Part shown: positions 20,084 to 51,303 of the stretch, piece after piece
Numbering within the stretch: position 1 is the first letter of the stretch
Layout: every line of letters starts with the position of its first letter
Source of the DNA: a bacterium
GTDB taxonomy: Bacteria > Electryoneota > Electryoneia > Electryoneales > Electryoneaceae
Assembly (NCBI GenBank): GCA_028278125.1
Contig: JANQEY010000121.1
Location: 14,709 to 78,708, forward strand
Direction of reading: 5' to 3'
Length of the DNA stretch: 64,000 nucleotides
Translations under genes and position numbers: made by a program
The notes under the pieces: model-generated
Told to the model about the DNA's origin: nothing
The model's input: the letters and a program-made list of their open reading frames with translations, nothing else
Database searches by the model: none

Positions 20084-20199
20084 TTTGATGTCTTCCTGTT
20101 CGAATTTAAACAGCTGATCTAAAAGGAATAAATAAGCGTGTACTTTAATATACGCACTCTTTTTACTGAACAATGGCTGCATTGTTTCTAAATAAGCTC

Positions 20200-35093: not shown

Positions 35094-35582
35094 GTGAGCC
35101 ATTGCCTGTTCTTCGGGACTCATCACAATAAACTTGATGAGAAATCGAGAATTGTCATGCCTGCAGCATACAGGCGTGAGAATCCTCGTGAAGTCCTCGA
35201 AGGTGAATTCTGGCTCACCCCTCACGATTCCGGTTACCTCATGGTTCGCCCCAGTTTTGTCTTTGAAAATCTTGTTCAGTCGATCAAGAACAAGATGGAT
35301 GAAAATCCGCAAAAGGTCAACCTGTTCATCAGGTATTTATATACCAATTCTGTAAAGATCAAGCTTGATTCGCAGAACCGAATTGTCCTTTCCCAGAAAA
35401 TCCGTGAAAAGCTGAAATTCCAGGATCCGAAACCCAGGGAAGATGTAGTCCTCGTGGGATCGGGTGATTATTTCGAAATCTGGCCGGGTGAAAAGTTTGA
35501 GAGTGAAGAAGAGTCTCTGACGAAACTTTCCGGCATGATGGATGAATGGGGGGCAAGCGTGAGCATCGAGACGAACAAGTGA
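35094..35582 (+). CDS. mraZ: transcriptional regulator MraZ
   Basis: 162 residues, GTG start at 35094 with AAGGGAAACTACC upstream. Two AbrB-like MraZ repeats: FFGTHHNKLDEKSRIVMPAAYR near residue 5-26 and the second around SVKIKLDSQNRIVLSQKIRE at about 84-103. It forms ring-shaped multimers and represses the dcw operon in other bacteria. The last 20 residues are an acidic tail. First gene of the cluster, with the direct repeats above as its likely target; ends in a TGATG overlap with rsmH. Confidence 0.95.
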   Translation: MSHCLFFGTHHNKLDEKSRIVMPAAYRRENPREVLEGEFWLTPHDSGYLMVRPSFVFENLVQSIKNKMDENPQKVNLFIRYLYTNSVKIKLDSQNRIVLSQKIREKLKFQDPKPREDVVLVGSGDYFEIWPGEKFESEEESLTKLSGMMDEWGASVSIETNK

Positions 35583-36532: not shown

Positions 36533-36567
36533 CACGATTTAATCTGATTCACATAATCGAGAAAAAA

Positions 36568-36981
36568 GTGCTGGAAACCAAGCAACGAATTTCACCTGTT
36601 AAATCAAATAAAGCGGCAGGTATTGCCTCGCTTGTTGGAATATTCATACTCCTGCTTGCCAGTGTCTATATCAAGGTTCTGCAGGTTCGTTATGGCCAGG
36701 AAATCCAGAATTTTCGCACAGAAGTTTCACTGTATCGTAATGAAGTCCGTGACCTGAGATGTAAAAAATCAAAATTAACTGCTTTCACAAGTATAGATAA
36801 AAAAGCAAAAGAGATGGGAATGATTTTCCCGAACCAGATTCATGAAGATTTAGTGGTTTTTGTTCCAGAGGGGCGTGTGCCTGCTTCGTGTTCATCTGAC
36901 GGAAAAACGCTTGATTCAAAAATGAATACGACAAAACAGGGTAAAATTCAGATCGCCCAGAGGAAAGAGTATAGACCATGA
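36568..36981 (+). CDS. ftsL: cell division protein FtsL-like
   Basis: 137 residues, GTG start at 36568. One membrane span (about 18-38, ASLVGIFILLLASVYIKVL) followed by a short coiled coil (YGQEIQNFRTEVSLYRNEVRDL) and a conserved 'KAKEMGMIFPNQ' stretch like the family's 'A..LGM..P'. FtsL links the FtsQB and FtsWI parts of the divisome. It lies between rsmH and ftsI, the invariant ftsL position, and overlaps ftsI by ATGA. The 45-residue polar tail is unusual but harmless. Confidence 0.85.
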   Translation: MLETKQRISPVKSNKAAGIASLVGIFILLLASVYIKVLQVRYGQEIQNFRTEVSLYRNEVRDLRCKKSKLTAFTSIDKKAKEMGMIFPNQIHEDLVVFVPEGRVPASCSSDGKTLDSKMNTTKQGKIQIAQRKEYRP

Positions 36982-39125
36982 ACCGTGAACAACGTTGGAA
37001 GAGACGCCCGGAGGTTTCGCTGCCGATATCGAGATCGAGGGTTTTTGCCGTCTTTTCCAGCTTTGTCATCCTTTCGGTATTTATAATTTTCCGTCTTGTC
37101 GAAGTCCAACTGGTTCGTCACAACGAATTTTCCACACGAGCAGATAGACAATACAAAAACCGGCATACAATCGATCCCAACCGTGGCAGGATCCTGGACA
37201 GGCGAGGGAATGACCTGGTTATAAATATCGCCAACCTCTATTCAATTGGTGTTAAAACTTCAAAGATCAAAAACCGGAATGAACTCGAACGCGAGTTGTC
37301 CGTAATCCTCGGAATTCCACGAAAAGAAATCAGGCAAAAACTATCCAGCAGCAAAGCTTTCACCTGGATTGTCAGGAAAGCAGATTTTAATGTCGCAAAA
37401 CAGGTCAGGGCATTGAGGGACCAGTCCATTGTCCTGCAAAAAGAGACCAAACGTGAATATCCATATGAGAAGGTAGGTGGCCAGGTTATCGGTTTTGTCA
37501 ATACTGACAACGAAGGTCAGGGTGGGATCGAATTGACATATGATCGCATCCTCAAGGGAGAACCTGGCTGGGAAATATTACAGCAATATGGAAAAAATCG
37601 ACAGATAGTTGATGAATCCTATCCATGTAATCCAGCTATTGATGGCGGCACTATAGTTCTTTCAATAGACATAAACGCTCAAGCTATCGCGGAAGAAGAA
37701 CTTGAAAAAGCGGTTAAAATTAGTGACGCGATAGGTGGAAGTATTGTAGTGACACGTCCCTCGACCGGTGAAATACTGGCAATAGCATCAGTCCCCGGTT
37801 TCGATCCAAACGACATAACCAAATCACAAATGATTAACAGGCAGAACCAGGCAGTTACTTCTGTTTATGAACCGGGATCGACATTTAAAGTGGTACCGTT
37901 TACAGGATTATTCGAAGAAGGACTACTCAGCATAGATGAATTGATTGACTGCGAGAAGGGTCGTTACCAGGTAGCGGACAGGGTAATCCGTGATACCCAT
38001 GAGAATGATATATTGACCGCCCGCCAGGTATTAACCAAGAGCTCGAACATCGGAACAGTAAAACTGGTGGAACGTCTCAATCCCCACCAGTTTTATACAC
38101 TTATCAGGGATTTTGGGTTTGACCAGTATACTGGAGTACCCCTCAATGGTGAAACAAAAGGACTCTTATCAGAACCGTCTAAATGGTCTGGTGTTTCACA
38201 GGCAAACCTGGCAATTGGACATGGTATAGGAGTTACGTCATTACAGACAGCAATGGCTTTTGGAGCGATAGCCAATGGCGGATTTTTAATGAAGCCAATG
38301 CTGGTTCTCTCAACTAAAACTCCCGAAGGTCAAACCGAACTGATAGAGCCGGAAATGGTTCGTCGAGTGATGCGTCCTTCAACTGCCCGAGCGATGCGTC
38401 TTCTTCTTGGTGATGCTGTCGCAACAGGGACCGGTACCCTGGCGTCCATTGATAATATTAACGTTTCAGGTAAAACAGGTACTGCCCAGAAGGTAGATCA
38501 TGAGAACCATTCCTATTACCAGGACAGGTTTGTCAGCTCATTCGTAGGATTTTTACCGACTGAACAGCCCGAGCTTTTGTGCCTGGTTGTAATTGATGAT
38601 CCGCAGGGAGATTATTACGGTGGTCTCGTAGCCGCCCCTGTATTCAGGAGAGTTATGGAACGGCTACTGGTTACGCTACCCCCCCAAGATTACTTGTTTG
38701 TCCAGGAAGATCAGGAATACGAATACGAGTATCCTGAAAACGCTTGTGTGGTCCCGTCCCTTGTTACACTGCCAAAAGTACAGGTTGCATCGATTCTTGA
38801 AAAATTGAATCTGGTTCCAGTTTGGACAGGCGAGGGTGAGATGGTTATCAGCCAGGGAACTCCACCAGGAACCAAAGTGATGTTTGGTTCGGGACTGGAG
38901 CTTGTACTTGGTGAATATACAACACATTCAGGGAAGGTAATTGTCCCTGATCTGGCGGGGATGGATTTACGTGAAGCAATTGCCATGCTTTCCGGTCTCG
39001 GTTTGTCAGTTAAGATCAACGGTGTAGGCAAGGTTAGTTCACAGGCTCCTGAGGCAGGATCATCTCTTAAGGTAGGTCAGACATGTACAATTTTCGCCGA
39101 AGCCGGTGTCAGGAGGGCTTCATGA
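36978..39125 (+). CDS. ftsI: division transpeptidase PBP3/FtsI with two PASTA domains
   Basis: 715 residues. Cytoplasmic basic N-terminus, one membrane span (about 22-42), a dimerisation domain, then the transpeptidase domain with SxxK at 301-304 (STFK), SSN at 355-357 and KTG at 499-501. Residues about 588-650 and 653-713 are two PASTA domains (VPSLVTLPKVQVASIL..., VPDLAGMDLREAIAML...). Class B PBPs with PASTA are known in Gram-positives and several FCB/Spirochaete-like groups. Cross-links septal peptidoglycan with FtsW. Overlaps ftsL and murE. Confidence 0.96.
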   Translation: MNREQRWKRRPEVSLPISRSRVFAVFSSFVILSVFIIFRLVEVQLVRHNEFSTRADRQYKNRHTIDPNRGRILDRRGNDLVINIANLYSIGVKTSKIKNRNELERELSVILGIPRKEIRQKLSSSKAFTWIVRKADFNVAKQVRALRDQSIVLQKETKREYPYEKVGGQVIGFVNTDNEGQGGIELTYDRILKGEPGWEILQQYGKNRQIVDESYPCNPAIDGGTIVLSIDINAQAIAEEELEKAVKISDAIGGSIVVTRPSTGEILAIASVPGFDPNDITKSQMINRQNQAVTSVYEPGSTFKVVPFTGLFEEGLLSIDELIDCEKGRYQVADRVIRDTHENDILTARQVLTKSSNIGTVKLVERLNPHQFYTLIRDFGFDQYTGVPLNGETKGLLSEPSKWSGVSQANLAIGHGIGVTSLQTAMAFGAIANGGFLMKPMLVLSTKTPEGQTELIEPEMVRRVMRPSTARAMRLLLGDAVATGTGTLASIDNINVSGKTGTAQKVDHENHSYYQDRFVSSFVGFLPTEQPELLCLVVIDDPQGDYYGGLVAAPVFRRVMERLLVTLPPQDYLFVQEDQEYEYEYPENACVVPSLVTLPKVQVASILEKLNLVPVWTGEGEMVISQGTPPGTKVMFGSGLELVLGEYTTHSGKVIVPDLAGMDLREAIAMLSGLGLSVKINGVGKVSSQAPEAGSSLKVGQTCTIFAEAGVRRAS

Positions 39126-40570
39126 AGATTGAACAACTGGCTGCCAGTATTCCCGGCGCAAAAGTTAGAGGTGATGGTTCCACCGAGATAAAATCAATTC
39201 AATATGACAGTCGAGCTGTAAAATCCGGAGATCTTTTCTGCGCAATTAAAGGCGAAAAGTTTGATGGCAATGAATATATCGATAATGCTGTCCGTTCAGG
39301 TGCCGCTGGTGTTTTAACATCCAGCAGAGAACTATCAATCCAGGTTCCGGTTATAAATGTCCCGAATGACAGGGAAGGGATGGCGCTGGCAGCGCATTCG
39401 ATCTACAATAATCCCACTTCACGATTGGAAGTTCTTGGTATTACAGGTACAAATGGGAAAACCACCAGCCTGATCCAACTCCAGAGTATCCTTAAGTATG
39501 CAGGTTATAAAACCGGCCGTATAGGCACCCTCGGCTGGGAAATTGATGGTTTCGAGGAAGAGAACGAAAGGACTACACCAGAAGCCATCGATATCCTGGA
39601 TATAATCGCGGGAATGGAAGACCGGGATGCATCGCATGTCGTTATGGAAGTTACTTCGATCGCGACAATCATGCATCGTGTCTCCGGATTCGATTTTAGG
39701 GGTGGGTTGTTCCTGAACCTGACTCAAGATCACCTCGACCTACACGGATCCATGGAAGAGTATTTCAAAGCAAAAAAATTATTCTTTGAGATGCTTCCGG
39801 AAAACACACCCGGTGCTGTGAATGGTGATGATCCTTATGGACCCAGGATGCTTGAAAATGTTAATTGCAAACCGGTTGTTTTTTCGTTTAATAGCGATTC
39901 TGATGTCCGGGGCGAGACAATTGAGAACTCATCCAGTGGCTTAAAAATCAATATCACCGGGATATTCGGTGAATTTACTGTTGAATCGCCTCTTATCGGT
40001 GGATTTAACGCTGAAAATATCCTGGGCGTAATTGCTCTTGCGTTGGCTTATGGTATTGACAGCGAAACTATCGTAAAAGGACTTGCCAACGCACCACAGG
40101 TCCGTGGTCGGATGGAAAAAATCGTACTGCCGAACGGCGCTAATGCCGTAGTCGATTATGCACACGCACCCGGTGCGATTGATAAAGCACTGGAAGCCCT
40201 TAAGCCAATAACGGGTGGTCGGCTGATCATTGTATTTGGAGCAGGTGGCGATCGTGATACAACCAAACGTGCTTTGATGGGCGAAATCGCCTCCAGAATG
40301 GCTGACAGCGTGATAATAACCAGCGACAACCCACGTACTGAGAATCCTGAAAAAATCATTGAGAACATTAAGAACGGTGTTGTTGGCAATAATGTATCCA
40401 CAGATACTGACCGGGCATCTGCAATAAGAAAAGCCATTACCGGTTCTGGTAAAGGAGATACTGTATTAATCGCAGGGAAAGGTCATGAGACCTACCAGGA
40501 AATTAACGGGATAAAACATCATTTTGATGATCGTGAAGAAGTTTTAAAAATCAGGGAAGAAATGTCATGA
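39122..40570 (+). CDS. murE: UDP-N-acetylmuramoyl-L-alanyl-D-glutamate--2,6-diaminopimelate ligase
   Basis: 482 residues from ATG 39122 (ATGA overlap with ftsI); an upstream in-frame ATG at 39083 is inside ftsI. Mur ligase P-loop GITGTNGKTT at about 106-115 and the DNPR motif (SDNPRTENP, near residue 402) that selects meso-diaminopimelate over lysine. Adds the third residue of the peptidoglycan stem peptide. Ends in an ATGA overlap with murF. Confidence 0.97.
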   Translation: MKIEQLAASIPGAKVRGDGSTEIKSIQYDSRAVKSGDLFCAIKGEKFDGNEYIDNAVRSGAAGVLTSSRELSIQVPVINVPNDREGMALAAHSIYNNPTSRLEVLGITGTNGKTTSLIQLQSILKYAGYKTGRIGTLGWEIDGFEEENERTTPEAIDILDIIAGMEDRDASHVVMEVTSIATIMHRVSGFDFRGGLFLNLTQDHLDLHGSMEEYFKAKKLFFEMLPENTPGAVNGDDPYGPRMLENVNCKPVVFSFNSDSDVRGETIENSSSGLKINITGIFGEFTVESPLIGGFNAENILGVIALALAYGIDSETIVKGLANAPQVRGRMEKIVLPNGANAVVDYAHAPGAIDKALEALKPITGGRLIIVFGAGGDRDTTKRALMGEIASRMADSVIITSDNPRTENPEKIIENIKNGVVGNNVSTDTDRASAIRKAITGSGKGDTVLIAGKGHETYQEINGIKHHFDDREEVLKIREEMS

Positions 40571-41976
40571 TCATCACTGAAAATACAGCTGTTGAGGCTG
40601 GGATTGAAATTATAGGTGCTTGGGACGAGAATTTACCACCGGTAACGATGGATTCCCGTTCCGTTGAAAGTGGGGATCTTTTCTGGGCTCTTGCAGGTGG
40701 TGCAAGAGACGGGCATGAATTTATCCCGCAAGCAGTTGAAAATGGTGCAGGAATTATTGCTGCTGAAAAAGCCTGGGTAGAATCATGGGGTGAGAAATTT
40801 TCCGACGTGACAATGTTTGTCATGGAAGATACCATGGCTGGCCTTCAAAGTTTTGCGAACGAAGTTCGGAAAACTGTCGGAGCAAAGGTGATTGGTATAA
40901 CAGGTTCAAGGGGAAAAACAACAACACGTGAGATGGTGACCAAAGCCCTTTCGTCATATGGGAAAGTAGCGCAAAATCCGGGTAATTATAACAATCATAT
41001 CGGTGTACCCCTGACACTTCTCAACATAGCTGGCGATGAAGATTTCCTGGTGATCGAGATGGGTGCGAACCATATCGGTGAGATTGAACTGTTGTGCCAC
41101 ATTGCTCAGCCTGACATGGGATTGATAATAAATATTGCTGAAGCGCACCTCGAAGGATTTGGTGGAATCGAAGGTGTACAAAAAGCTAAGGGTGAACTGT
41201 TTGAGTACCTGAAAGAGACAGGGCTGGCCATTGTTAACCTTGATGATTTCAGGGTAGTGGAAGCTTCGGTAAACAATATTGACAAATCAGGATTTACCCT
41301 TGGGGAATGGCCGGAAAACTGGCGACATGCACTCTATGCGGGTAGCGTGGTTGCCACTGACGACTGGTCACGTCCGACTCTTGCTGTGGAGGGGATGACT
41401 GTCAGGTTGAATCTGCCCGGAAAACACTTCGCTTCAGGCGCGATGGCGGCATACGCTGTAGCTATTGAATCCGGGGCGGAACCGGACTTGGCACTAAAAG
41501 CTATCGCTGAAACTGAGCCTATGAAGGGCAGAGGAAATATTATCGAATTGGCGCGAGATGTCCAGGTCCTGGATGAGACATATAACGCCAGCATTCCCTC
41601 AATTGAATCTTCCCTTGAAACACTCGCCAATCGTCCGGGAGCAAAAGTCGCAATCCTGGGGGATTGCCTTGAGCTTGGTGAATACTCTGAAGACGAACAT
41701 AAACGCCTCGGAAGGTCATTGTTATTAAACGACATGGATTATATCTACCTTGTTGGTGAAAACATGCGTTGGACAGCCGAGGAAGCAGAACTGGCAGGAA
41801 TCAGCAATGTTCAATGGGTGGATTTAAAAGATACAGAAACTGTACTGGAAAACTTCCTGGATAACATCGAGGATGGGACCAGTGTTCTTGTTAAAGGATC
41901 GCGTTCCATGAAGATGGAACACCTTGTAGGCATCATAGAAGATTCCCTGGGGAAAAAATCGGGAGTAGAGGGATGA
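40567..41976 (+). CDS. murF: UDP-N-acetylmuramoyl-tripeptide--D-alanyl-D-alanine ligase
   Basis: 469 residues. Mur ligase with P-loop GITGSRGKTTTREM (an Arg where Asn is more usual), QNPGNYNNHIGVPLTLL, and DETYNASIPSIESSLE. Adds D-Ala-D-Ala to the stem tripeptide, giving the complete UDP-pentapeptide. In most clusters mraY follows; here murD starts immediately with an ATGA overlap, so no gene has been lost to sequencing gaps at this junction. Confidence 0.96.
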   Translation: MIITENTAVEAGIEIIGAWDENLPPVTMDSRSVESGDLFWALAGGARDGHEFIPQAVENGAGIIAAEKAWVESWGEKFSDVTMFVMEDTMAGLQSFANEVRKTVGAKVIGITGSRGKTTTREMVTKALSSYGKVAQNPGNYNNHIGVPLTLLNIAGDEDFLVIEMGANHIGEIELLCHIAQPDMGLIINIAEAHLEGFGGIEGVQKAKGELFEYLKETGLAIVNLDDFRVVEASVNNIDKSGFTLGEWPENWRHALYAGSVVATDDWSRPTLAVEGMTVRLNLPGKHFASGAMAAYAVAIESGAEPDLALKAIAETEPMKGRGNIIELARDVQVLDETYNASIPSIESSLETLANRPGAKVAILGDCLELGEYSEDEHKRLGRSLLLNDMDYIYLVGENMRWTAEEAELAGISNVQWVDLKDTETVLENFLDNIEDGTSVLVKGSRSMKMEHLVGIIEDSLGKKSGVEG

Positions 41977-43343
41977 ATACAGTATACCTTCCCGAATCTT
42001 TGAAAGGCTTACATGCCTGGATACTTGGACTGGCAAGAAGTGGTATCGCAGCCGCCAGGTTGTTAAATGAGAACGGGATGCGTGTCTTTGTAACGGAAAT
42101 CAGGCACGAATCGGAAGTAAAGGAGGATGCAGACTTCCTTCGATCCCTGGGAATTGAAGTCCAATCAGGCGGACACCGGTTTGATAACCTTGAAATCCCG
42201 GAATTCGCCGTTCTCAGTCCTGGGATACCTTTGGATGCACCGGCTGTTCGATATCTTCGTGACAAAGGTTGCAAACTCTATTCGGAAATTGAGGTAGCTT
42301 CATGGTTCCATAATGGGATCATAGTCTCGGTTACCGGATCCAATGGGAAAACGACCGTTACTACCTGGATTGCGCATCTGTTGAGAGGCGCGGGATATGA
42401 TGCTCTCGCCGCTGGAAATATTGGCTATCCATTCTGTGACCTTGTCCGTAACCGTCCCAAAACCTCTATTGCAGTTGTCGAAACTAGTAGCTATCAACTT
42501 GAGACGATAAAATCCTTCCATCCGAAAATAGCGGTTATCACAAATATCTCACCGGATCACCTGGAACGTCACAAGACAATGGAAGAGTACACCCGGATCA
42601 AAGCAAGAATCTGGGAGAACCAGTCGGAAAATGACCTGGTGATTATCCCGGTTGATGATGAATCAATTGATAATGTAAAACAAAGTATTCCCGGAAATAT
42701 TGAACTGTTCAGCACTGAAAAGTGCCCTGAGGGAGGGGCAGGAATCCATGACAATATGCTGGTATTCGTAAATCCTGGAGAGAATCTTCAACTGGTAAGC
42801 AAAGATGAGATTCCTGTCCCTGGCCGCCACAATACGGCTAATGCGCTGGCGACAGCGCTGGTCGCTCGTAAACTGGAAGTCAGCATAGTTGATATTCGTG
42901 AAGGCATGCGAAGTTTCCCCGGTTTGCCCCATCGATTGGAAATTGTTGGAGAAAATGGAAGGACCTGGGTAAACGACAGTAAAGCGACAAATGTGGAAAG
43001 TTTGAGAGTGGCACTTGAAGCAGTTCAAAAACCGGTTTGGCTAATCGCAGGTGGTCGCGATAAAGGTGATTCGTACTCACCGATTGAAAAGCTGGTTAGA
43101 GAAAAAGTAGATCGTCTCCTGCTGATAGGAGAAGGTGCTGAGAGATTGGAAAGAGAACTCGGAGATGTGGCAAGCTCCGTTGTCCTTGAAACACTGGAAA
43201 ATGCAGTGAATATGGCTAATCGTGAAGCAGAGGAGGGTACAACCGTTCTCTTGTCACCCGGATGTGCAAGTTTTGATCAGTTCAAAAACTTTGAAGACAG
43301 GGGTGATTATTTCCGCAAACTGGTTGGGGAGGTAATCAGGTGA
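41973..43343 (+). CDS. murD: UDP-N-acetylmuramoylalanine--D-glutamate ligase
   Basis: 456 residues. N-terminal UDP-binding GLARSGIAAARLLNENG, P-loop VTGSNGKTTVTTW, SPDHLERHKTMEEY and the C-terminal WVNDSKATNVES and GGRDKGDSY segments are typical of MurD. Adds D-glutamate to UDP-MurNAc-L-Ala. Overlaps murF (ATGA) and ftsW (GTGA). Confidence 0.97.
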   Translation: MNTVYLPESLKGLHAWILGLARSGIAAARLLNENGMRVFVTEIRHESEVKEDADFLRSLGIEVQSGGHRFDNLEIPEFAVLSPGIPLDAPAVRYLRDKGCKLYSEIEVASWFHNGIIVSVTGSNGKTTVTTWIAHLLRGAGYDALAAGNIGYPFCDLVRNRPKTSIAVVETSSYQLETIKSFHPKIAVITNISPDHLERHKTMEEYTRIKARIWENQSENDLVIIPVDDESIDNVKQSIPGNIELFSTEKCPEGGAGIHDNMLVFVNPGENLQLVSKDEIPVPGRHNTANALATALVARKLEVSIVDIREGMRSFPGLPHRLEIVGENGRTWVNDSKATNVESLRVALEAVQKPVWLIAGGRDKGDSYSPIEKLVREKVDRLLLIGEGAERLERELGDVASSVVLETLENAVNMANREAEEGTTVLLSPGCASFDQFKNFEDRGDYFRKLVGEVIR

Positions 43344-44500
43344 GACCACTCGTGCCAATTGGACCACCTCGTAAAAACCAGGGAGTTGATTTTATCCTGC
43401 TTACGGTAATTCTGCTGCTCACGATTATCGGACTGGTAATAGTTTATTCGGCGAGCAGTGAAAGATCGATGGCGGATTATGGAAATCCACACAAGATGTT
43501 CCTGACTCAATTTTTCAGGGCTATTGTCGGGCTTGGCATCCTCGCATTTATGATGTATATGCCCTATCACATCTGGCGGAAGTTTGCAATCCCGGCGATC
43601 CTGATTTCTGCACTTTGCCTTGTCCTGATTTTCCTCAGCAACCTTGGCGTTGAAAGCCATGGTGCCCGTCGCTGGATCAATGCCGGACCAATAAACTTCC
43701 AGCCCTCGGAAGTGGCAAAGTTCTCAATTGTTCTATTCCTGGCATCGTGGGCAAGGACTCATGTAAACAGCATATTTAATTTCCGTGAAGGAATTTTTAT
43801 TCCGTTAAGCATTGCTTTTATTCTCGTTGCGATCATTGCCATGCAGCCAGATTTCTCAACCGCTGCAATGATAGCAGCGATTGCCATAATAATGGTATTC
43901 ATATCCGGTTCTCGACTAACACATCTCGCCGCTGTCTTCGGCCCACTGATGTTGATAGCCTCAATTTTCGTCTGGATTTCACCTTATCGCAGAGCAAGAC
44001 TTCTGAGTTATTTCAGTTTGGGAATAGACCTTGATAAAACAGAATACCAGGTTTTGCAATCATGGATTGGCTTCGGACGGGGTGGTTTGACGGGTGTTGG
44101 TACGGGTGAGAGCAGGCAGAAACTATTCTTCCTCCCCGATGGTCATACAGACTTTATTTACAGTGTGATAGGTGAAGAATGGGGATTTATCGGTACACTG
44201 ATTGTGCTGTTACTATTCCTGGTGCTAATCTGGCGTGGACTAAGGATTGGTTTCCGTTGTCCTGATCCGTTTGGTGGACGGCTGGCTATTGGATTTACGT
44301 TCGCAATCGGCCTATATGCACTTGTTAACATGGCCATCGCCGTTGGTGTTCTACCAACTACAGGCTTGCCGCTTCCATTTATCAGTTATGGCGGGACATC
44401 CCTGATTCTGACATACGCTGTCAGCGGGGTGATTCTGAATATCTCGCATTATGGTACTCCGGGTAAACAAATGAGAACAGGAGGTGTTGAAACCTTATGA
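43340..44500 (+). CDS. ftsW: peptidoglycan polymerase FtsW (SEDS family)
   Basis: 386 residues, GTG start overlapping the murD stop. About ten membrane spans. SEDS motifs: VYSASSERS in span 1, HGARRWINAGPINFQPSEVAKF, MQPDFSTAAM, and the C-terminal PTTGLPLPFISYGGTSLI. Polymerises lipid II at the septum together with FtsI. In most clusters murG follows; here murC starts by an ATGA overlap. Confidence 0.97.
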   Translation: MRPLVPIGPPRKNQGVDFILLTVILLLTIIGLVIVYSASSERSMADYGNPHKMFLTQFFRAIVGLGILAFMMYMPYHIWRKFAIPAILISALCLVLIFLSNLGVESHGARRWINAGPINFQPSEVAKFSIVLFLASWARTHVNSIFNFREGIFIPLSIAFILVAIIAMQPDFSTAAMIAAIAIIMVFISGSRLTHLAAVFGPLMLIASIFVWISPYRRARLLSYFSLGIDLDKTEYQVLQSWIGFGRGGLTGVGTGESRQKLFFLPDGHTDFIYSVIGEEWGFIGTLIVLLLFLVLIWRGLRIGFRCPDPFGGRLAIGFTFAIGLYALVNMAIAVGVLPTTGLPLPFISYGGTSLILTYAVSGVILNISHYGTPGKQMRTGGVETL

Positions 44501-45885
44501 AGTACCTCCTGAAAAAAATCCAGAGGATTCATTTTGTCGGGATCGGCGGAATTGGAATGAGTGGAATCGCCGAGTTGCTGGCGAAGCAGGGAATAGCAAT
44601 ATCCGGGAGTGATCTGACAAAATCTCCAATAACCGACCATCTTGAAGGATGTGGATGCAAAATCTGGCAGGGGCACGACACATCGCATGTAGAAGGTGCA
44701 AACGCTGTGGTCTACAGTAGTGCCGTTGATACAGATAATCCAGAACTACTTGAAGCCCGTGAGAAGGGAATACCTGTTATCCGCCGTGCTGAGATGCTTG
44801 GTGAACTGATGCGTTTAAAAACCGGTGTCGCCATTGCGGGTACACATGGAAAAACCACCACAACCTCAATGGTTGGTCATATTCTGACAGAGTCCGGACT
44901 GGATCCAACTGTTATTGTTGGTGGCGTATTAAGAGGACTTGGGACAAACGCGCGTCTTGGCGAAAGTGATCTTCTTATCGCTGAAGCTGATGAATATGAC
45001 CGTAGTTTCCTCAATCTTACACCAACCATTGCACTTATCACAAATCTTGAAGCAGAACACCTGGATACTTACGGCAGTTTTGAGAACCTACGCGATGCAT
45101 TTCTCAATTTTGCCAACTCAGCACCATTTTATGGGACTGCCGTAATTAACAGCGACGATCCCAACCTGGTGGATATCCTGCCTGAAATATCCCGCCCGGT
45201 TGTCACATATGGATTTAATCCCCATGCTGATTTTCATGGCGAAGATATAAAACTAGGAGAAATCAGTAGCTGCACGCTCTTTTACAAAGATGAGAAACTT
45301 GGTGAAATCAGTATTCCCATCGCCGGACGACACAATCTCAGCAACGCTATCGGTAGTGTTGCGATTGCCAGGGAATTTGATTTGTCGTTCGAACAAATCC
45401 AGGCAGCGTTAAAGACGTTTGAGGGTGTAAAAAGGCGTTTTGAGTTCCGTGGTGAAGTTGATGATATAGTTGTTTATGATGACTACGCTCATCACCCGAC
45501 TGAAGTGGAAATGACCCTCAAGGCAGCGAGACTTCTCAGCAACAGGCGTTTAATAGCAGTGTTCCAGCCACACCTCTATTCGAGGACGCAAACCTTCTAT
45601 TCCGAATTCGCGAAAGCACTGATGAATTCTGACATGCTGATCATAACCGGGATATTTCCATCCCGGGAAGAACCGATCGAGGGTGTCACAAGCGAATTGA
45701 TCGTTGATCGAATAAAGGAGTACGGGCACAAAGATGTTTATCACATACCTGAACGGAAAATGGTGGCAGATCATTTGGCACAAGTAGTAAAAAGCAGTGA
45801 TATGGTGCTGTGTCTTGGGGCAGGGGATATAAACAAAACATCTGATGAGTTGTTGACAATATTAAACCTGGAGGATGTCAGGTGA
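44497..45885 (+). CDS. murC: UDP-N-acetylmuramate--L-alanine ligase
   Basis: 462 residues. N-terminal HFVGIGGIGMSGIAELL, P-loop GTHGKTTTTSM, EADEYDRSFLNL, DDYAHHPTEV and FQPHLYSRT segments define MurC. First stem-peptide ligase, adding L-alanine. Overlaps ftsW (ATGA) and murB (GTGA), so the region normally holding murG is closed. Confidence 0.97.
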   Translation: MKYLLKKIQRIHFVGIGGIGMSGIAELLAKQGIAISGSDLTKSPITDHLEGCGCKIWQGHDTSHVEGANAVVYSSAVDTDNPELLEAREKGIPVIRRAEMLGELMRLKTGVAIAGTHGKTTTTSMVGHILTESGLDPTVIVGGVLRGLGTNARLGESDLLIAEADEYDRSFLNLTPTIALITNLEAEHLDTYGSFENLRDAFLNFANSAPFYGTAVINSDDPNLVDILPEISRPVVTYGFNPHADFHGEDIKLGEISSCTLFYKDEKLGEISIPIAGRHNLSNAIGSVAIAREFDLSFEQIQAALKTFEGVKRRFEFRGEVDDIVVYDDYAHHPTEVEMTLKAARLLSNRRLIAVFQPHLYSRTQTFYSEFAKALMNSDMLIITGIFPSREEPIEGVTSELIVDRIKEYGHKDVYHIPERKMVADHLAQVVKSSDMVLCLGAGDINKTSDELLTILNLEDVR

Positions 45886-46802
45886 TGGATCTGCAGCTAA
45901 TAAAGGATAGGCTGAACGACATCACCGGGGCGAGTGTCAGAGAAGATGTTGTCCTCGCACCATACACTTCCTACAAGATTGGTGGCCCATCTGATCTGTT
46001 TGTTGAACCCGGATCTTCTGAAGCCGTTGGTGCTGCCTTAAGAACAATCGCGGAAGAAGATGTTCCCCTGTTTGTTCTCGGTGGCGGCTGCAACCTGTTG
46101 ATCTCAGACAGCGGCTGGCGTGGCGTAACTCTATGCCTCGGAGACAATCTCACGGGATGGACATTAAAGGACACTGATGTAGAAGCAAAAGCGGGCACTG
46201 TGTTGCTCGATTTTATACACGCCATGAACCGGAACGGTCTTGGCGGAATGGAAAACATGGCAGGGATCCCAGGCAGAATTGGGGGTGCCTTGCGGATGAA
46301 CGCGGGAGCATTTGGACAAGAGATTAAGGAAACAGCTGTTGAGGTGGAGGGATTTTCGCTGAATGGTCAACCGTTTCGTCTGAATGCTGAGTCGATTGGA
46401 TTTGATTATCGCAAGGCACCAGGTCTGGATGATAAGGTAATTACAAATGCGAAGTTCAGGTTCACTGAAGATGAACCGGAAATACTTAAAAAAAAAACAG
46501 AAGAGACATTGCAGAAAAGAGACGAAAAACAGCCGCTTGAATATCCGTCCTGCGGCAGTGTGTTTAAACGTCCGCCGGGGCAATATGCCGGTGAGTTGAT
46601 TGAAAGAGCTGGACTGAAAGGGACACGTATTGGTGGAGCGATGGTCAGCGAGAAGCATGCGGGATTTATTGTTAATGAAAACAATGCTTCGGCGGATGAT
46701 GTTTATCAAATGATAAATATGATCAAAAGTAAAATATATGATTTGTTTAATGTTGAACTGGAATGTGAAGTAAAAATGGTAGGTGATTTTGGTGAAGTTT
46801 AG
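45882..46802 (+). CDS. murB: UDP-N-acetylenolpyruvoylglucosamine reductase
   Basis: 306 residues; GTG 45882 directly before an ATG, with CTGGAGGATGTCAG upstream favouring the GTG. FAD-binding YTSYKIGGPSDLFVEP and LGGGCNLLISD, AGIPGRIGGALRMNAGAFG, and the catalytic serine segment YPSCGSVFKRPPG. Reduces the enolpyruvyl group to make UDP-MurNAc. Followed by ftsQ with an 11-base overlap. Confidence 0.96.
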   Translation: MMDLQLIKDRLNDITGASVREDVVLAPYTSYKIGGPSDLFVEPGSSEAVGAALRTIAEEDVPLFVLGGGCNLLISDSGWRGVTLCLGDNLTGWTLKDTDVEAKAGTVLLDFIHAMNRNGLGGMENMAGIPGRIGGALRMNAGAFGQEIKETAVEVEGFSLNGQPFRLNAESIGFDYRKAPGLDDKVITNAKFRFTEDEPEILKKKTEETLQKRDEKQPLEYPSCGSVFKRPPGQYAGELIERAGLKGTRIGGAMVSEKHAGFIVNENNASADDVYQMINMIKSKIYDLFNVELECEVKMVGDFGEV

Positions 46803-47847
46803 ACGAACAAGTATGGCGCGGAAAATCCGTAACCCGGAAAAAACGAGATCTTCCAGGACAAGGAAAGCGCCAAGAGCAAAGAAAAAAATCGGCAGGAAAA
46901 TCCTTGCAGGACTGGTCCTCTCATGCCTTGTGTTCTTTTCAGTTCGTCACTCTGATTTCCTGCTGCAAAAAGTTGGAATAAAAAAACCGGGTAGTCCTGG
47001 TCTGGAACTGGTAACAGGTGAAGAAGCTTCCGATCAAAAAAACAGTGGTGAAGTTAAAATCAAAGATACACGGGATAAAAATTCAGAATCAGGAGAAATC
47101 GCAGAACAAGATACAGCTGAGATTGCTGATGACAGTAAAAACATTATCTCATGGTTAAGTCTGAAACCATTATTAAACAAAGTGTTTATAGTTGAAAACA
47201 TAAAGCTCAAGGGTGTTTACAGTATCGCCAGGGACAGCCTTTCCAAAAATCTTGAGAGACTGATTGATGAGCCGTTGCTGGATTTGGATTTACCGGTTTT
47301 AGCTGAACAGTTGGAAAAACACCCGAGGATTAAAGAAGTCTCCTTACGCCGTCAATTACCGAAGACGCTGGTAGTAAAAGTGAACGAAAGACGAGAAGTA
47401 GCCCAGGTTATTGTTGGAAACAAACCTCTTGGGATTGACAGGGATGGCGTAATCCTCTCAAAACCGCAACCAGGTTGGCCTGTGGATGTAGCCGTTATAA
47501 CCGGATACAAAAAAAGATTTGGAATAGGTGAGCAGATATCAAATACACCAGTCAAGGATGCGCTGAAGTGGATTCGTGCAGCTGAAAAATATCCCCTGGT
47601 ATCGAGATGGATTACTGAGCTTGAAGTTCAGGATCCCGGGTTAACCTGGATCAGCGGAGCTGATGGGATGCTGGTGAAGCCGGGTAAACATAACATCGAA
47701 GCCCAGGTGGCGACAATAAACGCTTACCTGGTTAAAAAACAGACTGAAAAGACGGAGCCGGGAATAATCGACCTGACTTTTCCCGGTTACCTGATCCTTT
47801 GCGAAAATCGAGAGAAAGATGAAAATACAACAGCTACTGATGCCTGA
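46792..47847 (+). CDS. ftsQ: cell division protein FtsQ
   Basis: 351 residues from GTG 46792, chosen because TAGGTG lies 6 bases upstream; ATG 46813 and earlier GTG 46783 are alternatives. A very basic cytoplasmic N-terminus (Lys/Arg/Ser rich, ~35 residues), one membrane span (about 38-56), a polar acidic linker of ~80 residues, then a POTRA domain (FIVENIKLKGVYSIARDSL...) and FtsQ beta domain (RRQLPKTLVVKVNERREVAQV). The linker is longer than in E. coli FtsQ. Position between murB and ftsA supports the call. Confidence 0.92.
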   Translation: MKFRRTSMARKIRNPEKTRSSRTRKAPRAKKKIGRKILAGLVLSCLVFFSVRHSDFLLQKVGIKKPGSPGLELVTGEEASDQKNSGEVKIKDTRDKNSESGEIAEQDTAEIADDSKNIISWLSLKPLLNKVFIVENIKLKGVYSIARDSLSKNLERLIDEPLLDLDLPVLAEQLEKHPRIKEVSLRRQLPKTLVVKVNERREVAQVIVGNKPLGIDRDGVILSKPQPGWPVDVAVITGYKKRFGIGEQISNTPVKDALKWIRAAEKYPLVSRWITELEVQDPGLTWISGADGMLVKPGKHNIEAQVATINAYLVKKQTEKTEPGIIDLTFPGYLILCENREKDENTTATDA

Positions 47848-47868
47848 TAACCAGCGAGGGAGGGTATA

Positions 47869-49119
47869 ATGCACGCCCGGGAAATGATAGTCGGACTGGA
47901 TCTTGGAACTACCAAGGTATCTACCATTATCGCCGAGGTCGATGAGCAGGGTGCGGCAAATATCGTTGGTGTTGGTTTCTGCGAAGCCCAGGGGATGCAG
48001 AGAGGCGTTGTAATCAACGTCGATAAGACCATCCAGGCTATTGAGCGCAGTATCGAAGAAGCTGAAAGAATGGCCGGTGTGCAGGTTAGTTCGGTTTACG
48101 CCGGTATTGCCGGTGACCATATCCGTTCGATTAACAGCAAGGGTGTTATTGCCGTTACGAGAACATCACGGGATCGTACCGGTGTTATCACCAAGAAGGA
48201 TGTGGACAGGGTAATTGAAGCAGCCAAGGCGATGTACCTGCCCATGGACAGGGAGGTACTCCATGTCCTGCCACGTGAATTTACTGTTGATGATCAGCCG
48301 AATATACCCGATCCGGTTGGAATGACAGGAGTACGTCTCGAAGCGGATGTTCACATCATTACAGGGGCGGTGGCCAGCGCTCAAAATGTTTTCAGGTGTG
48401 TTAAACAGGCTGGTATATCTGTCCGTGACCTTGTGCTTGAACCGCTCGCTTCCAGCTATTCAGTCTTAACTGACGATGAGAAGGAATTTGGTGTTGGGTT
48501 ACTCGATATAGGTGGTGGGACAACCGACATCGCGGTTTTTGAACGGGGTTCGATCAGGCATACATCAGTGATTGGTCTTGGCGGAGAAAATGTAACCCGT
48601 GATATGGCAGTTGGACTAAGAACACCGTTTGAGAACGCTGAAAAAATCAAGATGGAGCATGGCAATTGTTTTGTTGACAGTGCGGAACCGAATGAAGAGG
48701 TGGAAATCCCGGGAATCGGGGGACGTTCTCCAAGAACAGTTTCAGCCGAAACTGTCAGCGAAATAATCCAGCCGAGGATGGAAGAGATATTCGAGCTGGC
48801 AGCGGCGCAAATGCGTAAAGCCGGTGCGTGGGACGCGATTATCACCGGTGGAATAGTTCTCACAGGCGGTGGAGCTCAACTCGACGGTGCTGTGGAACTG
48901 GCTGAAAGTGTATTCCAGCTGCCGGTAAAACTTGGTACTCCCACCGGGCTCGGGGGATTGATGCAGCATGCCAACAGTCCAGTTCACGCAACTGGTGTTG
49001 GGCTTGTTTTATACGGATTGGACCAGGTTGGAAGTCCTGATCCGTTCAGGGGTGACGATACTAAAATTTTCCAGAAAATATTTGGGAGGATGAGGGAATG
49101 GTTCGAAGACTTTTTCTAG
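47869..49119 (+). CDS. ftsA: cell division protein FtsA
   Basis: 416 residues, ribosome site GCGAGGGAGGGTATA. Actin-like ATPase: phosphate 1 loop GLDLGTTKVSTIIAE, SHS2 domain region RGVVINVDKTIQAIERSI, phosphate 2 GLLDIGGGTTDIAVF, and ITGGIVLTGGGAQL. The C-terminus ends in an amphipathic helix (GRMREWFEDFF) that tethers FtsZ to the membrane. The last 22 bases overlap the long ftsZ start. Confidence 0.97.
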   Translation: MHAREMIVGLDLGTTKVSTIIAEVDEQGAANIVGVGFCEAQGMQRGVVINVDKTIQAIERSIEEAERMAGVQVSSVYAGIAGDHIRSINSKGVIAVTRTSRDRTGVITKKDVDRVIEAAKAMYLPMDREVLHVLPREFTVDDQPNIPDPVGMTGVRLEADVHIITGAVASAQNVFRCVKQAGISVRDLVLEPLASSYSVLTDDEKEFGVGLLDIGGGTTDIAVFERGSIRHTSVIGLGGENVTRDMAVGLRTPFENAEKIKMEHGNCFVDSAEPNEEVEIPGIGGRSPRTVSAETVSEIIQPRMEEIFELAAAQMRKAGAWDAIITGGIVLTGGGAQLDGAVELAESVFQLPVKLGTPTGLGGLMQHANSPVHATGVGLVLYGLDQVGSPDPFRGDDTKIFQKIFGRMREWFEDFF

Positions 49120-51146
49120 AAGGCGAAGACGGATCCGAACGGTCGGCCGGACGCATTGGCCCCGAACCGATCCCGGTTGATCCGGAAAAGAACCAGGATA
49201 TCAATTCGGACTCGAACGAAACAGAAGAATCCAGCGAACTCACTGTGCGCGAGATTGTTCTCGGTGACACTTCGGAAACAATTGATAATGCCATCATGAC
49301 CGAAGAGATCTCCGAAGAGGAAACGACGGAAGCTGAAGAAACGATCAAATCAACTATTGAGGCCGAGTTCGAAAATCCCGGTGAAGAAGAGATGTCCATT
49401 TCCGTGACTGTCAAAACGGAAGAGGTCGATGAACTGATGCCAGAACCGGATAAAACCAGGAAGCAGAGCGATCCTGACGAGACTATCAGCATTCCTGTTG
49501 GTGAGGAGGAGGAAAATCCTAAGGCGACAGCCAAACAGGCAAAAGTCGAGGACGGAGATAAAGATCCGGTTGAATCCCTGTATTCCGCCTTGGATGAGCT
49601 TGAAAAAGCAGTCGATATCAATCCTTCCGCGGATGACAGGAATAACAAATTCCTGGAAATCGAATTTGGAAGCGAAAGCGAAGCGGAAGAACCGGAAGCT
49701 GAAAAAGCACCCGTTGATGCATCACTCGACGAAGAGACTGAAGAAGACACAAAAGAAAACAATAACATAGACAACACGGCTACTGAAGTTGAAGACACAG
49801 CAGCCGATGGAGGTCGTTCCATGAGTCTTGATACGCTTGGAGGAAACTTGAGATTCGGCTTCGAGGAGGAGGATCAGCGTGCAAGGATGAAGGTAATCGG
49901 TGTTGGCGGGGCAGGTTCCAATGCCGTGGACAACATGATCAAAAGCGCGCTGGATGGTGTTGAGTTTATTAATGTGAATACCGATGTGCAGGCTCTTGAT
50001 TGCAGCATGCCTGGACGCAAAATCCAGATCGGTAAATCCCTGACAAAGGGACTTGGTGCGGGCGCCAATCCTGAAATCGGACGTGCATCGGCGGAAGAGG
50101 ATATCAACGAATTACGTGATATGCTCGAAGGCGCCGACATGGTCTTCATTACTGCCGGGATGGGCGGCGGAACAGGTACTGGGGCAGCACCTGTTATCGC
50201 GCAACTGGCACGTGAACGTGATATCCTGACAGTAGGTATTGTCAGCCGACCGTTTACGTTTGAAGGACCAAAACGTCTGCAGCGTGCTGAAGCGGGGATC
50301 ACTGAAATGCGTGCTTCGGTTGATTCACTCATCGTTATCCCAAATGACCTTATCCTGAAGATCTGTGATGATGACATTTCGGTTACTTCAGCCTTCCGTA
50401 AAGCCGATGAAGTGTTGTACCAGGGTACAAAAGGTATCAGCGATATCATTAATACCCGTGGTTTTGTTAACCTTGATTTCGCAGACGCAAAGGCGGTTAT
50501 GTCATGTTCCGGTGACGCGATTATGGGACTTGGACAGGCATCAGGTGAGAACAGGGCGGTTGAGGCTGCCGACGCGGCCATCACCAGCCCGTTGCTGGAT
50601 AACCTGAGCATCGAAGGTGCCAAGGGAATCCTGATTAATATTACCGGTAACTCCGATATGGGTATGCTGGAGGTCAACCGTGCCGTTGAACTGATCACCA
50701 GCCGTGCAGGTGAAGAAGCGGATGTCTACTTCGGTATTGTCCATGACGATTCCATCGGTGACATGATCAATGTAACAGTTATCGCCACCGGGTTTAACAG
50801 TGTTGAACCGAAGATTAAACCGATTAAATCCGTTGAGAAGACTAGAACACGTTCAGGTGACGTTCGGGTAACTACCAGGACTACCCCCGTCCAAAGCCAT
50901 GACGCGAACGGAAACGGGAACGCAAACGGCAATGGAAATGCCAATGGCAACGGACCTGCAAATGGCAATGGCCCGTCGAACGGTGACATGGACGATAAGG
51001 GAACAATGACCTTCGAACGTGTTGAAGCGGAATACGATCCATACGAGTCGGATTCCTTACCCGATCCAGACCTGATGGACGAACTTGACGCAAACGATTT
51101 AGAGATGCCCACCTTCCTGAGAAAGAGGAAGTTCAGGAAGGGATAA
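49098..51146 (+). CDS. ftsZ: cell division protein FtsZ with long acidic N-terminal extension and internal start
   Basis: 682 residues from ATG 49098 (GGGAGG 8 bases upstream). Residues 1-263 are an extension rich in Glu, Asp, Ser and Thr, with a helical patch DPVESLYSALDELEKAV near 156-172. The tubulin-like GTPase core begins at MKVIGVGGAGSNAV (264 on), with the tubulin signature GGGTGTG at 356-362. The C-terminus has an Asn-Gly repeat linker and the conserved end peptide EMPTFLRKRKF that binds FtsA. A second ribosome site, GGAGG at 49809-49813, lies 7 bases before an in-frame ATG at 49821, so a 441-residue FtsZ of ordinary form could also be made. Usual FtsZ is 350-450 residues. It polymerises into the division ring. 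Confidence 0.96.
   Translation: MVRRLFLEGEDGSERSAGRIGPEPIPVDPEKNQDINSDSNETEESSELTVREIVLGDTSETIDNAIMTEEISEEETTEAEETIKSTIEAEFENPGEEEMSISVTVKTEEVDELMPEPDKTRKQSDPDETISIPVGEEEENPKATAKQAKVEDGDKDPVESLYSALDELEKAVDINPSADDRNNKFLEIEFGSESEAEEPEAEKAPVDASLDEETEEDTKENNNIDNTATEVEDTAADGGRSMSLDTLGGNLRFGFEEEDQRARMKVIGVGGAGSNAVDNMIKSALDGVEFINVNTDVQALDCSMPGRKIQIGKSLTKGLGAGANPEIGRASAEEDINELRDMLEGADMVFITAGMGGGTGTGAAPVIAQLARERDILTVGIVSRPFTFEGPKRLQRAEAGITEMRASVDSLIVIPNDLILKICDDDISVTSAFRKADEVLYQGTKGISDIINTRGFVNLDFADAKAVMSCSGDAIMGLGQASGENRAVEAADAAITSPLLDNLSIEGAKGILINITGNSDMGMLEVNRAVELITSRAGEEADVYFGIVHDDSIGDMINVTVIATGFNSVEPKIKPIKSVEKTRTRSGDVRVTTRTTPVQSHDANGNGNANGNGNANGNGPANGNGPSNGDMDDKGTMTFERVEAEYDPYESDSLPDPDLMDELDANDLEMPTFLRKRKFRKG
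49809..49823 (+). promoter_or_regulatory. internal ribosome binding site and start codon within ftsZ
   Basis: GGAGG at 49809-49813, spacer TCGTTCC, ATG at 49821, in frame with the long ftsZ. The product would start MSLDTLGGNLRFGF, about 22 residues before the GTPase core, as in ordinary FtsZ. Spacing and sequence are as good as at the upstream start. Confidence 0.55.
50895..50990 (+). repeat. Asn-Gly codon repeat in the FtsZ linker
   Basis: Tandem short repeats of AAC/AAT-GGN-AAN-GCN codons encode HDANGNGNANGNGNANGNGP and on. It forms the flexible linker between the GTPase core and the C-terminal FtsA-binding peptide. Copy number may vary between strains. Confidence 0.75.
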
Positions 51147-51184
51147 TAATACTACACCCAATAAGAAACTAGTCTCCCAAGCGG

Positions 51185-51208
51185 CAAACCCGGCGAAAGC
51201 CGGGTTTG
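51185..51208 (+). terminator. terminator of the dcw cluster after ftsZ
   Basis: Stem CAAACCCGGC / GCCGGGTTTG (10 pairs) with a GAAA tetraloop, then TTGTTTAT, 38 bases past the ftsZ stop. Confidence 0.8.
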
Positions 51209-51250
51209 TTGTTTATAGAAAGTTGTTGTATTTGTCTACCGATCGGGTGG

Positions 51251-51303
51251 CCCGACTTGACTTATATCCTCCGTAGCTTTAGCGAAGGGGGACGTAAGTC
51301 GGG
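51251..51303. repeat. imperfect palindromic repeat element
   Basis: CCCGACTT (51251-51258) pairs with AAGTCGGG (51296-51303); inside, ATCCTCC (51266-51272) pairs with GGGGGAC around 51287-51293, with a CGTAGCTTTAGCGAA centre. Its start, CCCGACTTGA, is shared with the REP-like arms at 13861. It lies just after the dcw terminator, at the edge of an AT-rich island. Confidence 0.5.

What the first reader, a model, noticed from the sequence alone, without database searches (positions are those of the whole stretch)
49098..51146. FtsZ with a ~263-residue acidic extension before the GTPase core
The ftsZ frame runs without a stop from an ATG with a good ribosome site inside ftsA through 723 bases of Glu/Asp/Ser/Thr-rich coding sequence before the tubulin core. 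Usual FtsZ has 10-30 residues there. A charged N-terminal tail on the ring polymer could space filaments or bind a partner.
Basis: partly seen in the sequence, partly recalled or inferred. Interest (0 to 1): 0.78.

Follow-up and report, generated by a model that had tools for sequence, protein, structure and literature searches.

The report
FtsZ with nested long acidic start
In one poorly known bacterial phylum the cell-division protein FtsZ carries a long, floppy, negatively charged front end, and its gene seems built to make two versions of the protein, one with and one without that tail.

Summary
The ftsZ frame is open from 49098, inside the end of ftsA, to 51146 (682 aa), with 241 acidic residues before the usual FtsZ start. 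It is not an artefact: 13 further FtsZ from relatives (Electryoneota, judged by FtsA) have the same plan, with 70-309 residues. These 14, plus one relative annotated without it, form one clade (100/100); the other 176 FtsZ held have at most 39 residues there. The tail is acidic in all 14, predicted disordered, and evolves much faster than the core. Its MVRRxFL tip is explained by the ftsA overlap.

All 14 have a Met at the canonical place; at 49821 it has the longest Shine-Dalgarno match (GGAGGT) of 31 in-frame starts, and in all 14 the residues before it could encode a 5-nt one. I conclude that the extension is real (about 0.93) and that the gene probably makes two nested subunits, FtsZ-L and canonical FtsZ-S (about 0.6). 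A charged-spacer role is inferred, with one possible docking motif. DNA of relatives and proteomics were not available.

The parts
47869..49119 (+). ftsA; its last codons (EWFEDFF, stop) overlap the long ftsZ start
   Evidence: TIGR01174 452 bits
49084..49089 (+). Shine-Dalgarno-like GGGAGG for the long start, 8 nt before ATG 49098
49098..49119 (+). 22-nt ftsA/ftsZ overlap; encodes the FtsA C-terminal tail in one frame and MVRRLFL in the other
   Evidence: overlap possible by codon choice in 7 of 7 FtsA/FtsZ pairs (window and six matched by equal contig length)
49098..49820 (+). acidic disordered N-terminal extension of FtsZ-L, residues 1-241
   Evidence: pLDDT below 50 except residues 53 and about 157-172
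49242..49259 (+). recurrent short motif TVREIV, residues 49-54
   Evidence: pattern in 7 of 14 extensions, 4 of 8 lineages; window tests mixed
49566..49607 (+). weakly predicted helix inside the extension, residues 157-170 (pLDDT of block 161-170: 64)
49809..49814 (+). internal Shine-Dalgarno GGAGGT, 6 nt before ATG 49821
   Evidence: longest match among the 31 in-frame start codons of the ORF
49821..51146 (+). canonical FtsZ (FtsZ-S, 441 aa) nested in the same frame
   Evidence: Met kept in 14 of 14 long members; relative P0002 is annotated from this Met, also 441 aa
49887..50369 (+). tubulin/FtsZ GTPase domain
   Evidence: Pfam PF00091; GGGTGTG at residue 356, NLDFAD at 458 (motif meaning recalled)
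50511..50795 (+). FtsZ C-terminal core domain
   Evidence: Pfam PF12327
50802..51062 (+). C-terminal linker, Asn/Gly-rich in part, close to neutral
   Evidence: pLDDT below 50; composition
51099..51131 (+). C-terminal peptide LEMPTFLRKRK, like the usual FtsA-binding peptide (function recalled)
   Evidence: sequence

Best explanation
One ftsZ gene with two nested in-frame starts. Shown by the window's sequence: a long ORF starting in the ftsA overlap (FtsZ-L, 682 aa) and, in the same frame, a canonical FtsZ (FtsZ-S, 441 aa) with its own strong ribosome site. Supported at protein level in the clade: the long plan, the internal Met, and residues that allow a ribosome site and the ftsA overlap. 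Inferred: ribosomes finishing ftsA make FtsZ-L at a level coupled to ftsA, while the internal site makes FtsZ-S independently, so tailed subunits are probably the minor form. Inferred: the two copolymerise through the same GTPase core, and the acidic disordered tails form a charged brush along the filament, opposing bundling and close approach of negatively charged surfaces, with a short motif in the tail as a possible docking site. The tail comes on top of a C-terminal linker and peptide of the usual kind.
For: Extension in 14 FtsZ that, with P0002, form one 100/100 clade of a 35-row tree; the other 176 FtsZ held (P0002 included) have at most 39 residues before the core. Frame kept despite fast divergence: core 99% and extension 78% identical for P0007/P0008; 92% and 68% for P0009/P0010. 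Acidic in all 14, NCPR -0.07 to -0.25. Predicted disorder. Internal Met 8-11 residues before the LR/YR motif in 13 of 14, 17 in P0003, which has a second Met 8 before; Met is 1.7% of extension residues. A 5-nt SD piece can be encoded before it in 14 of 14, against 27% of 2627 extension positions and 17 of 44 other extension Met; a 6-nt piece in 8 of 14, against 9% and 6 of 44. Ala/Ser/Gly follows it in 11 of 14, background 26%. In the window the internal start has a 6-nt SD at 6 nt and the long start a 5-nt one at 8 nt. Motif TV[RA]EI[IV] in 7 of 14; the best 6-residue windows lie at this site, above 300 of 300 shuffles in two sets of representatives.
Against: No DNA of any relative was obtained, so SDs and ftsA overlaps outside the window are inferred from amino acids. 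The members are related, so the counts are not independent. E-rich sequence easily encodes SD-like DNA: other extension Met reach 17 of 44. Two further in-frame starts of the window ORF also have 5-nt matches (ATG 49437 at 10 nt, TTG 49848 at 4 nt), and only 9 of 25 other window gene starts that I listed have 5 nt or more, so SD strength is a loose guide here. The motif is absent from half of the extensions; a BLOSUM-based search found nothing beyond chance (0.55 and 0.62 of shuffles as good); at 8 residues one set of representatives put another window first, at 0.08. No peptide or ribosome data. Acidic stretches of 60 residues or more also occur in 2 others of the 47 window genes I listed, so part of this may be a habit of the lineage. 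Brush and copolymer steps are untested.
Confidence: 0.55

Rival explanations
1. Only FtsZ-L is made. The gene gained an upstream start once, and the internal Met is a relic of the old start or an accident.
For: The long frame is open in all 14 long members and its start has a usable SD in the window. Of the 14 relatives in the clade, 13 are predicted long and 1 (P0002) short.
Against: The Met is kept in 14 of 14 while the residues around it drift, with SD-compatible residues before it and a start-like second residue in 11 of 14. A relic should decay like the rest of the extension.
Confidence: 0.22
2. The upstream frame mainly works during translation: ribosomes from ftsA run through it to open or feed the internal ftsZ start, and the peptide itself matters little.
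For: The extension aligns beyond shuffles in only 5 of 91 pairs, all close relatives, and overlaps ftsA in the window and possibly in the matched relatives.
Against: Coupling needs no in-frame fusion; a stop near 49821 would do. Charge is negative in all 14. In P0007/P0008 the first 102 residues are 98% identical while residues 205-255 are 40%, which points to protein-level constraint, though the other three pairs show weaker or different patterns. The RNA around 49821 is not unusually folded (z 1.17).
Confidence: 0.12
3. The extension is not made; translation starts only at 49821, as in other FtsZ.
For: 49821 has the longest SD match and P0002 is annotated from the equivalent Met.
Against: Untranslated spacer would hardly stay open in frame for 70-309 codons in 14 fast-diverging genes (lengths). 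In the window, shuffles carry 9 stops on average and 0 of 2000 are open.
Confidence: 0.04
4. FtsZ-L is a membrane-tethered form: the basic, hydrophobic MVRRxFL tip binds lipid and the acidic chain is a long tether.
For: Basic-hydrophobic tip in all 14 (MVRR, MVRG or MVQG). N-terminal amphipathic helices tether FtsZ elsewhere (OdinFtsZ1, PMC12583498 abstract and passages) or are proposed to (Atribacterota, PMC7736352 passages).
Against: The tip is fully accounted for by FtsA's C-terminal residues read in the other frame, so its conservation is no evidence for a role. It has seven residues and no predicted helix.
Confidence: 0.1

Closest known systems
FtsZ N-terminal peptide of heterocyst-forming cyanobacteria (Anabaena; PMC6175996, abstract and passages seen)
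   Same: A lineage-specific N-terminal region before the core (about 60 residues) that affects polymer form: without residues 2-51, thick bundles of straight filaments and no interaction with SepF. The authors suggest that it may keep a distance for lateral contacts, and they found 20 presumable start misannotations that excluded it in 97 genomes.
   Different: There it is short and conserved in sequence within the clade. Here it is 70-309 residues, acidic, predicted disordered, hardly conserved in sequence, overlaps ftsA and has an internal canonical start.
Second FtsZ with an N-terminal extension in Atribacterota RT761 (PMC7736352, abstract and passages seen)
   Same: A cell with both a conventional FtsZ and one with an N-terminal extension.
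   Different: There two genes, the extended one away from ftsA with a predicted amphipathic helix. Here one gene beside ftsA with nested starts and an acidic disordered tail.
FtsZ C-terminal linker (PMC9939409, passages seen; role in lateral contacts recalled)
   Same: Disordered, joins the core to a short conserved peptide.
   Different: Here a second, more acidic disordered arm is on the N-terminal side, and the C-terminal linkers run from -0.14 to +0.02 net charge per residue.
SctQ/YscQ of the type III secretion C-ring (PMC4295842, abstract and passages seen)
   Same: Full-length and short forms of a structural protein from one gene through an internal start; the short form is needed for assembly.
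   Different: Unrelated protein; there the short form is a C-terminal fragment, here it is a complete FtsZ.

Membership tests
FtsZ (TIGR00065) | score above the curated equivalog cut-off | tested here: met
   402.9 bits against 295.2
FtsZ (TIGR00065) | GTP-binding and T7-loop motifs intact (motifs recalled) | tested here: met
   GGGTGTG at residue 356, NLDFAD at 458
FtsZ (TIGR00065) | C-terminal peptide and place after ftsA in the dcw cluster | tested here: met
   LEMPTFLRKRK near the end; ftsA directly upstream; dcw genes before it
FtsZ (TIGR00065) | GTP-dependent polymerisation, Z-ring | not testable with these tools
   needs protein
Short N-terminal segment of ordinary FtsZ | about 10-40 residues before the core | tested here: not met
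   265 residues here; 14 of 190 FtsZ held exceed 60 and the other 176 have at most 39. The nested FtsZ-S would meet it.
Atribacterota-type FtsZ with N-terminal extension | N-terminal amphipathic helix | tested here: inconclusive
   residues 1-50 modelled without helix, pLDDT 32-39; no helical-wheel or membrane test was done
Atribacterota-type FtsZ with N-terminal extension | second, separate ftsZ gene in the genome | not testable with these tools
   no whole genome held for the window
Dual-start genes (internal initiation) | two in-frame starts, each with a ribosome site, both kept in relatives | tested here: inconclusive
   present in the window's DNA; in relatives only at protein level
Dual-start genes (internal initiation) | both proteins detected | not testable with these tools
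   needs proteomics or ribosome profiling

The most novel reading that the evidence does not exclude
A single ftsZ gene builds a two-component Z-ring: canonical FtsZ-S from an internal start, plus a minor FtsZ-L whose level is tied to ftsA by overlap. FtsZ-L carries a charged brush and a basic-hydrophobic tip that is literally the end of FtsA's C-terminal (membrane-targeting, recalled) sequence read in the next frame, giving tailed subunits their own tether or partner site.
Probability: 0.15. Interest if true: 0.85.

Novelty: new variant of a known kind. Interest (0 to 1): 0.6.

Why it matters
FtsZ is among the most conserved bacterial proteins, and most work on its disordered parts concerns the C-terminal side (recalled). 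A clade whose 14 observed long genes keep both an acidic N-terminal arm and the ordinary start gives a natural test of what a charged arm on the other side does, and of whether a cell can tune its Z-ring by mixing two subunits from one gene. It also shows an easy route to a new N-terminus: initiation inside the overlapping end of ftsA. It may explain why an annotation such as P0002 begins at the internal Met.

Tried and rejected
A. Genome neighbours: no genome is held for the window. The one genome-contig scan returned 26 loci labelled as other groups; upstream of the ftsZ match the longest open stretch is 52 codons, with one locus (L007) cut off by its contig end. A search of 60 genomes related to L017, with 16 ftsZ regions fetched and read, gave four with more than 200 open codons upstream, but these overlap ftsA in another frame and are not extensions; one listed with a 919-codon frame had 7 codons upstream when read. 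They show that an open frame alone proves little. A viral-contig scan confirmed none of 60 candidate stretches.

B. MVRRxFL as a conserved functional tip: rejected as evidence, because FtsA's C-terminus read one base on gives it.

C. Conserved blocks in the extension: 5 of 91 pairs align beyond shuffles, all close relatives; reduced-alphabet words gave at most one pattern in 4 lineages, where shuffles gave 0.1 on average; BLOSUM windows nothing. Only the composition-weighted windows pick the TV[RA]EI[IV] site (0 of 300 shuffles as good, twice, at 6 residues; at 8 residues one set gave 0 of 300 at this site, the other put a different window first at 0.08). A second word, [LYF][RQ]F, is in 7 of 14 (shuffles 0.3 on average, maximum 2) but was chosen after looking. 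A third idea, a Y-centred helix, was in 2 of 14: dropped.

D. Promoter between 48700 and 51300: 0 sigma-70-like sites (2.6 expected). RNA structure at either start: nothing unusual.

E. Tree: I chose 38 of the 190 FtsZ; P0071, P0083 and P0129 fell out because my core pattern missed them.

F. Unresolved: FtsA gives 28 relatives above a gap from 568 to 536 bits, but only 14 other FtsZ of the clade were listed. The FtsZ search took only proteins of 0.55-1.75 times the query length (375-1193 aa); longer, broken or cluster-hidden FtsZ cannot be excluded.
Full report
OBSERVATION. The frame 49098-51146 (+) reads 682 residues without a stop. Residues 257-578 are FtsZ by TIGR00065, well above its cut-off; ftsA ends at 49119, 22 nt into the frame. 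The first 241 residues match no Pfam or NCBIfam family at E<=1. They hold 32% Asp+Glu, 16% Ser+Thr, net charge -55. Dinucleotide shuffles of 49120-49820 average 9.0 stops per frame and 0 of 2000 are open; synonymous codon choice resembles that of ftsA. The opposite strand is open too (49061-49822), but the frame open there scores -0.022 in codon choice; the in-phase antisense frame scores as the sense frame does, with 2 stops. No whole genome is held for the window; it has no tRNA and no Rfam match at gathering scores.

RELATIVES. A protein search with the full ORF scored the 7999 candidates sharing most words and listed 120; a second with an alignment of 13 long forms did likewise. Thirteen further FtsZ (P0003-P0015) share the plan: a start reading MV[RQ][RG]xxL, an acidic chain, a Met, an LR or YR motif, the core. 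One more, P0002, is annotated from that Met and is 95% identical to the long P0006 from there on; its upstream DNA was not seen. In the second search these 14 relatives score 741 bits or more and the next protein 549. Of the 190 FtsZ held (window included), 14 have more than 60 residues before the core and the other 176, P0002 among them, at most 39. This speaks for the nearest FtsZ only; long N-terminal regions are known elsewhere (below). In a tree of 35 cores (38 chosen by me, three lost to my pattern) the 14 and P0002 form one clade at 100/100. Lineage: the window's FtsA is 72% identical to that of Candidatus Electryonea clarkiae and 58% to KSB1. I infer phylum Electryoneota (AABM5-125-24; PMC10439189, abstract and passages seen, no occurrence of FtsZ in its main text). 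Of 26 loci from other groups none showed a comparable extension, one being cut off.

NATURE OF THE EXTENSION. Lengths run from 70 to 309 residues (for P0003 and P0015 one search used a later Met, corrected). NCPR is -0.07 to -0.25 in the 14, while the C-terminal linkers run from -0.14 to +0.02. It diverges far faster than the core (78 against 99%, 68 against 92%, 41 against 83% in three close pairs) and aligns beyond shuffles in only 5 of 91 pairs. Constraint is uneven in one pair: in P0007/P0008 the first 102 residues are 98% identical, residues 205-255 40%; three other pairs show weaker or different patterns. AlphaFold2 on 16 sequences puts nearly all of it under pLDDT 50 and the core at 72-97 by blocks of ten. 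The word TV[RA]EI[IV] occurs in 7 of 14, in 4 of 8 lineages (0.003 sequences on average in shuffles; pattern chosen after looking). A window search weighted for composition finds this site first at 6 residues, above 300 of 300 shuffles in two sets of representatives; at 8 residues one set found it (0 of 300) and the other put another window first (0.08); a plain BLOSUM search found nothing (0.55 and 0.62). I treat it as a lead.

THE TIP. The MV...L start looked like a conserved tip, but FtsA ends in [E/A/G]WFxxFF-stop in the relatives paired here, and reading those codons one base on gives exactly such residues. In 7 of 7 FtsA/FtsZ pairs (the window and six relatives matched by equal contig length) one DNA can encode both ends. 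So the ftsA overlap is probably shared by the clade, and the tip's conservation is no evidence for a role.

THE INTERNAL START. All 14 keep a Met 8-11 residues before the LR/YR motif (17 in P0003, which has another at 8), although Met is 1.7% of extension residues and the neighbouring residues drift. In the window this ATG (49821) has GGAGGT at 6 nt, the longest match among 31 in-frame start codons; the long start has GGAGG at 8 nt; ATG 49437 and TTG 49848 also have 5 nt. Of 25 other gene starts in the window that I listed, 9 have 5 nt or more. In relatives, for which I have no DNA, the residues before the Met could encode a 5-nt SD piece in 14 of 14 (window included), against 27% of 2627 extension positions, 22% of 5699 core positions and 17 of 44 other extension Met; a 6-nt piece in 8 of 14, against 9% of extension positions and 6 of 44. 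Ala, Ser or Gly follows the Met in 11 of 14, background 26%. The sequences are related, so these odds must not be multiplied naively. No promoter-like site lies in 48700-51300 and neither start is unusually folded.

MECHANISM. I therefore favour one gene with two products: FtsZ-L from the ftsA overlap and canonical FtsZ-S from the internal start, sharing the core (GGGTGTG, NLDFAD) and so able to copolymerise. That FtsZ-L is the minor, ftsA-coupled form is inference. Which face the tail occupies is also inference; a review states that membrane deformation depends on whether FtsZ is attached by its N- or C-terminal end (PMC9111741, passages seen). A charged brush that limits bundling fits the disorder and charge and has a parallel in Anabaena, where removing residues 2-51 gives thick bundles (PMC6175996, abstract and passages). 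Acidic stretches of 60 residues or more occur in 3 of 47 window genes that I listed (ftsZ, rpoN and an unknown gene), so FtsZ may share a lineage habit.

KNOWN AND NEW. N-terminal regions of FtsZ up to about 200 residues are acknowledged in print (PMC6175996), and Atribacterota have a second ftsZ gene with an extension (PMC7736352). Full-text searches on FtsZ with 'N-terminal extension' (85 papers, 25 listed), 'alternative start codon' and 'isoforms' (2), 'intrinsically disordered' and 'N-terminal tail' (9), internal-start terms (63, 25 listed) and 'long N-terminal' (19, 15 listed), and on Electryoneota (2), showed no nested-start FtsZ and no Electryoneota FtsZ in what I saw, mostly listings; only open-licence papers are held. 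I rate it a new variant of a known kind.

LIMITS. No DNA from relatives, no proteomics. Twenty-eight FtsA relatives stand above the gap, but only fourteen other FtsZ of the clade were seen; the length filter (375-1193 aa) and clustering may hide the rest, so 'all members of the phylum' is not claimed.

Noticed in passing
window 44478-44511: The strong ribosome site of murC (AGGAGGTG, start 44497) folds with murC's own coding start into an 11-pair hairpin (z -3.1); murC overlaps the end of ftsW by 4 nt, so murC translation may depend on ribosomes arriving from ftsW.
   Followed up: no
window 35546-51146: The dcw cluster runs rsmH, ftsI-type PBP, murE, murF, murD, ftsW, murC, murB, ftsQ-type, ftsA, ftsZ; mraY and murG, usually between murF/murD and ftsW/murC (recalled), have no room at those places.
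   Followed up: partly
window 23512-24960: RpoN (sigma-54, TIGR02395) carries a 109-residue acidic stretch from residue 20, the second longest among the 47 window genes I listed.
   Followed up: no
window 18548-20182 (-): A ClpX/HslU-like ATPase of 544 aa: best match ClpX at 304.8 bits, under the cut-offs of both ClpX models (359, 370.75) and of HslU (362.45); match covers residues 81-447 only.
   Followed up: no
window 49061-49822 (-): A 253-codon open frame antisense to the extension, Ser-rich; codon choice not gene-like (-0.022). Probably a shadow of the acidic sense codons.
   Followed up: partly
extensions of P0005-P0010 and P0014 (proteins, no locus): A short [LYF][RQ]F word resembling the LRF of the canonical FtsZ N-terminus recurs inside 7 of 14 extensions (shuffles 0.3 on average); could be a repeated copy of the segment next to the core.
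   Followed up: partly
window 14160-16406: Protein ending in a PNPFN...VFNLLGQ stretch, as in C-terminal sorting domains of FCB-group bacteria (recalled, not tested).
   Followed up: no
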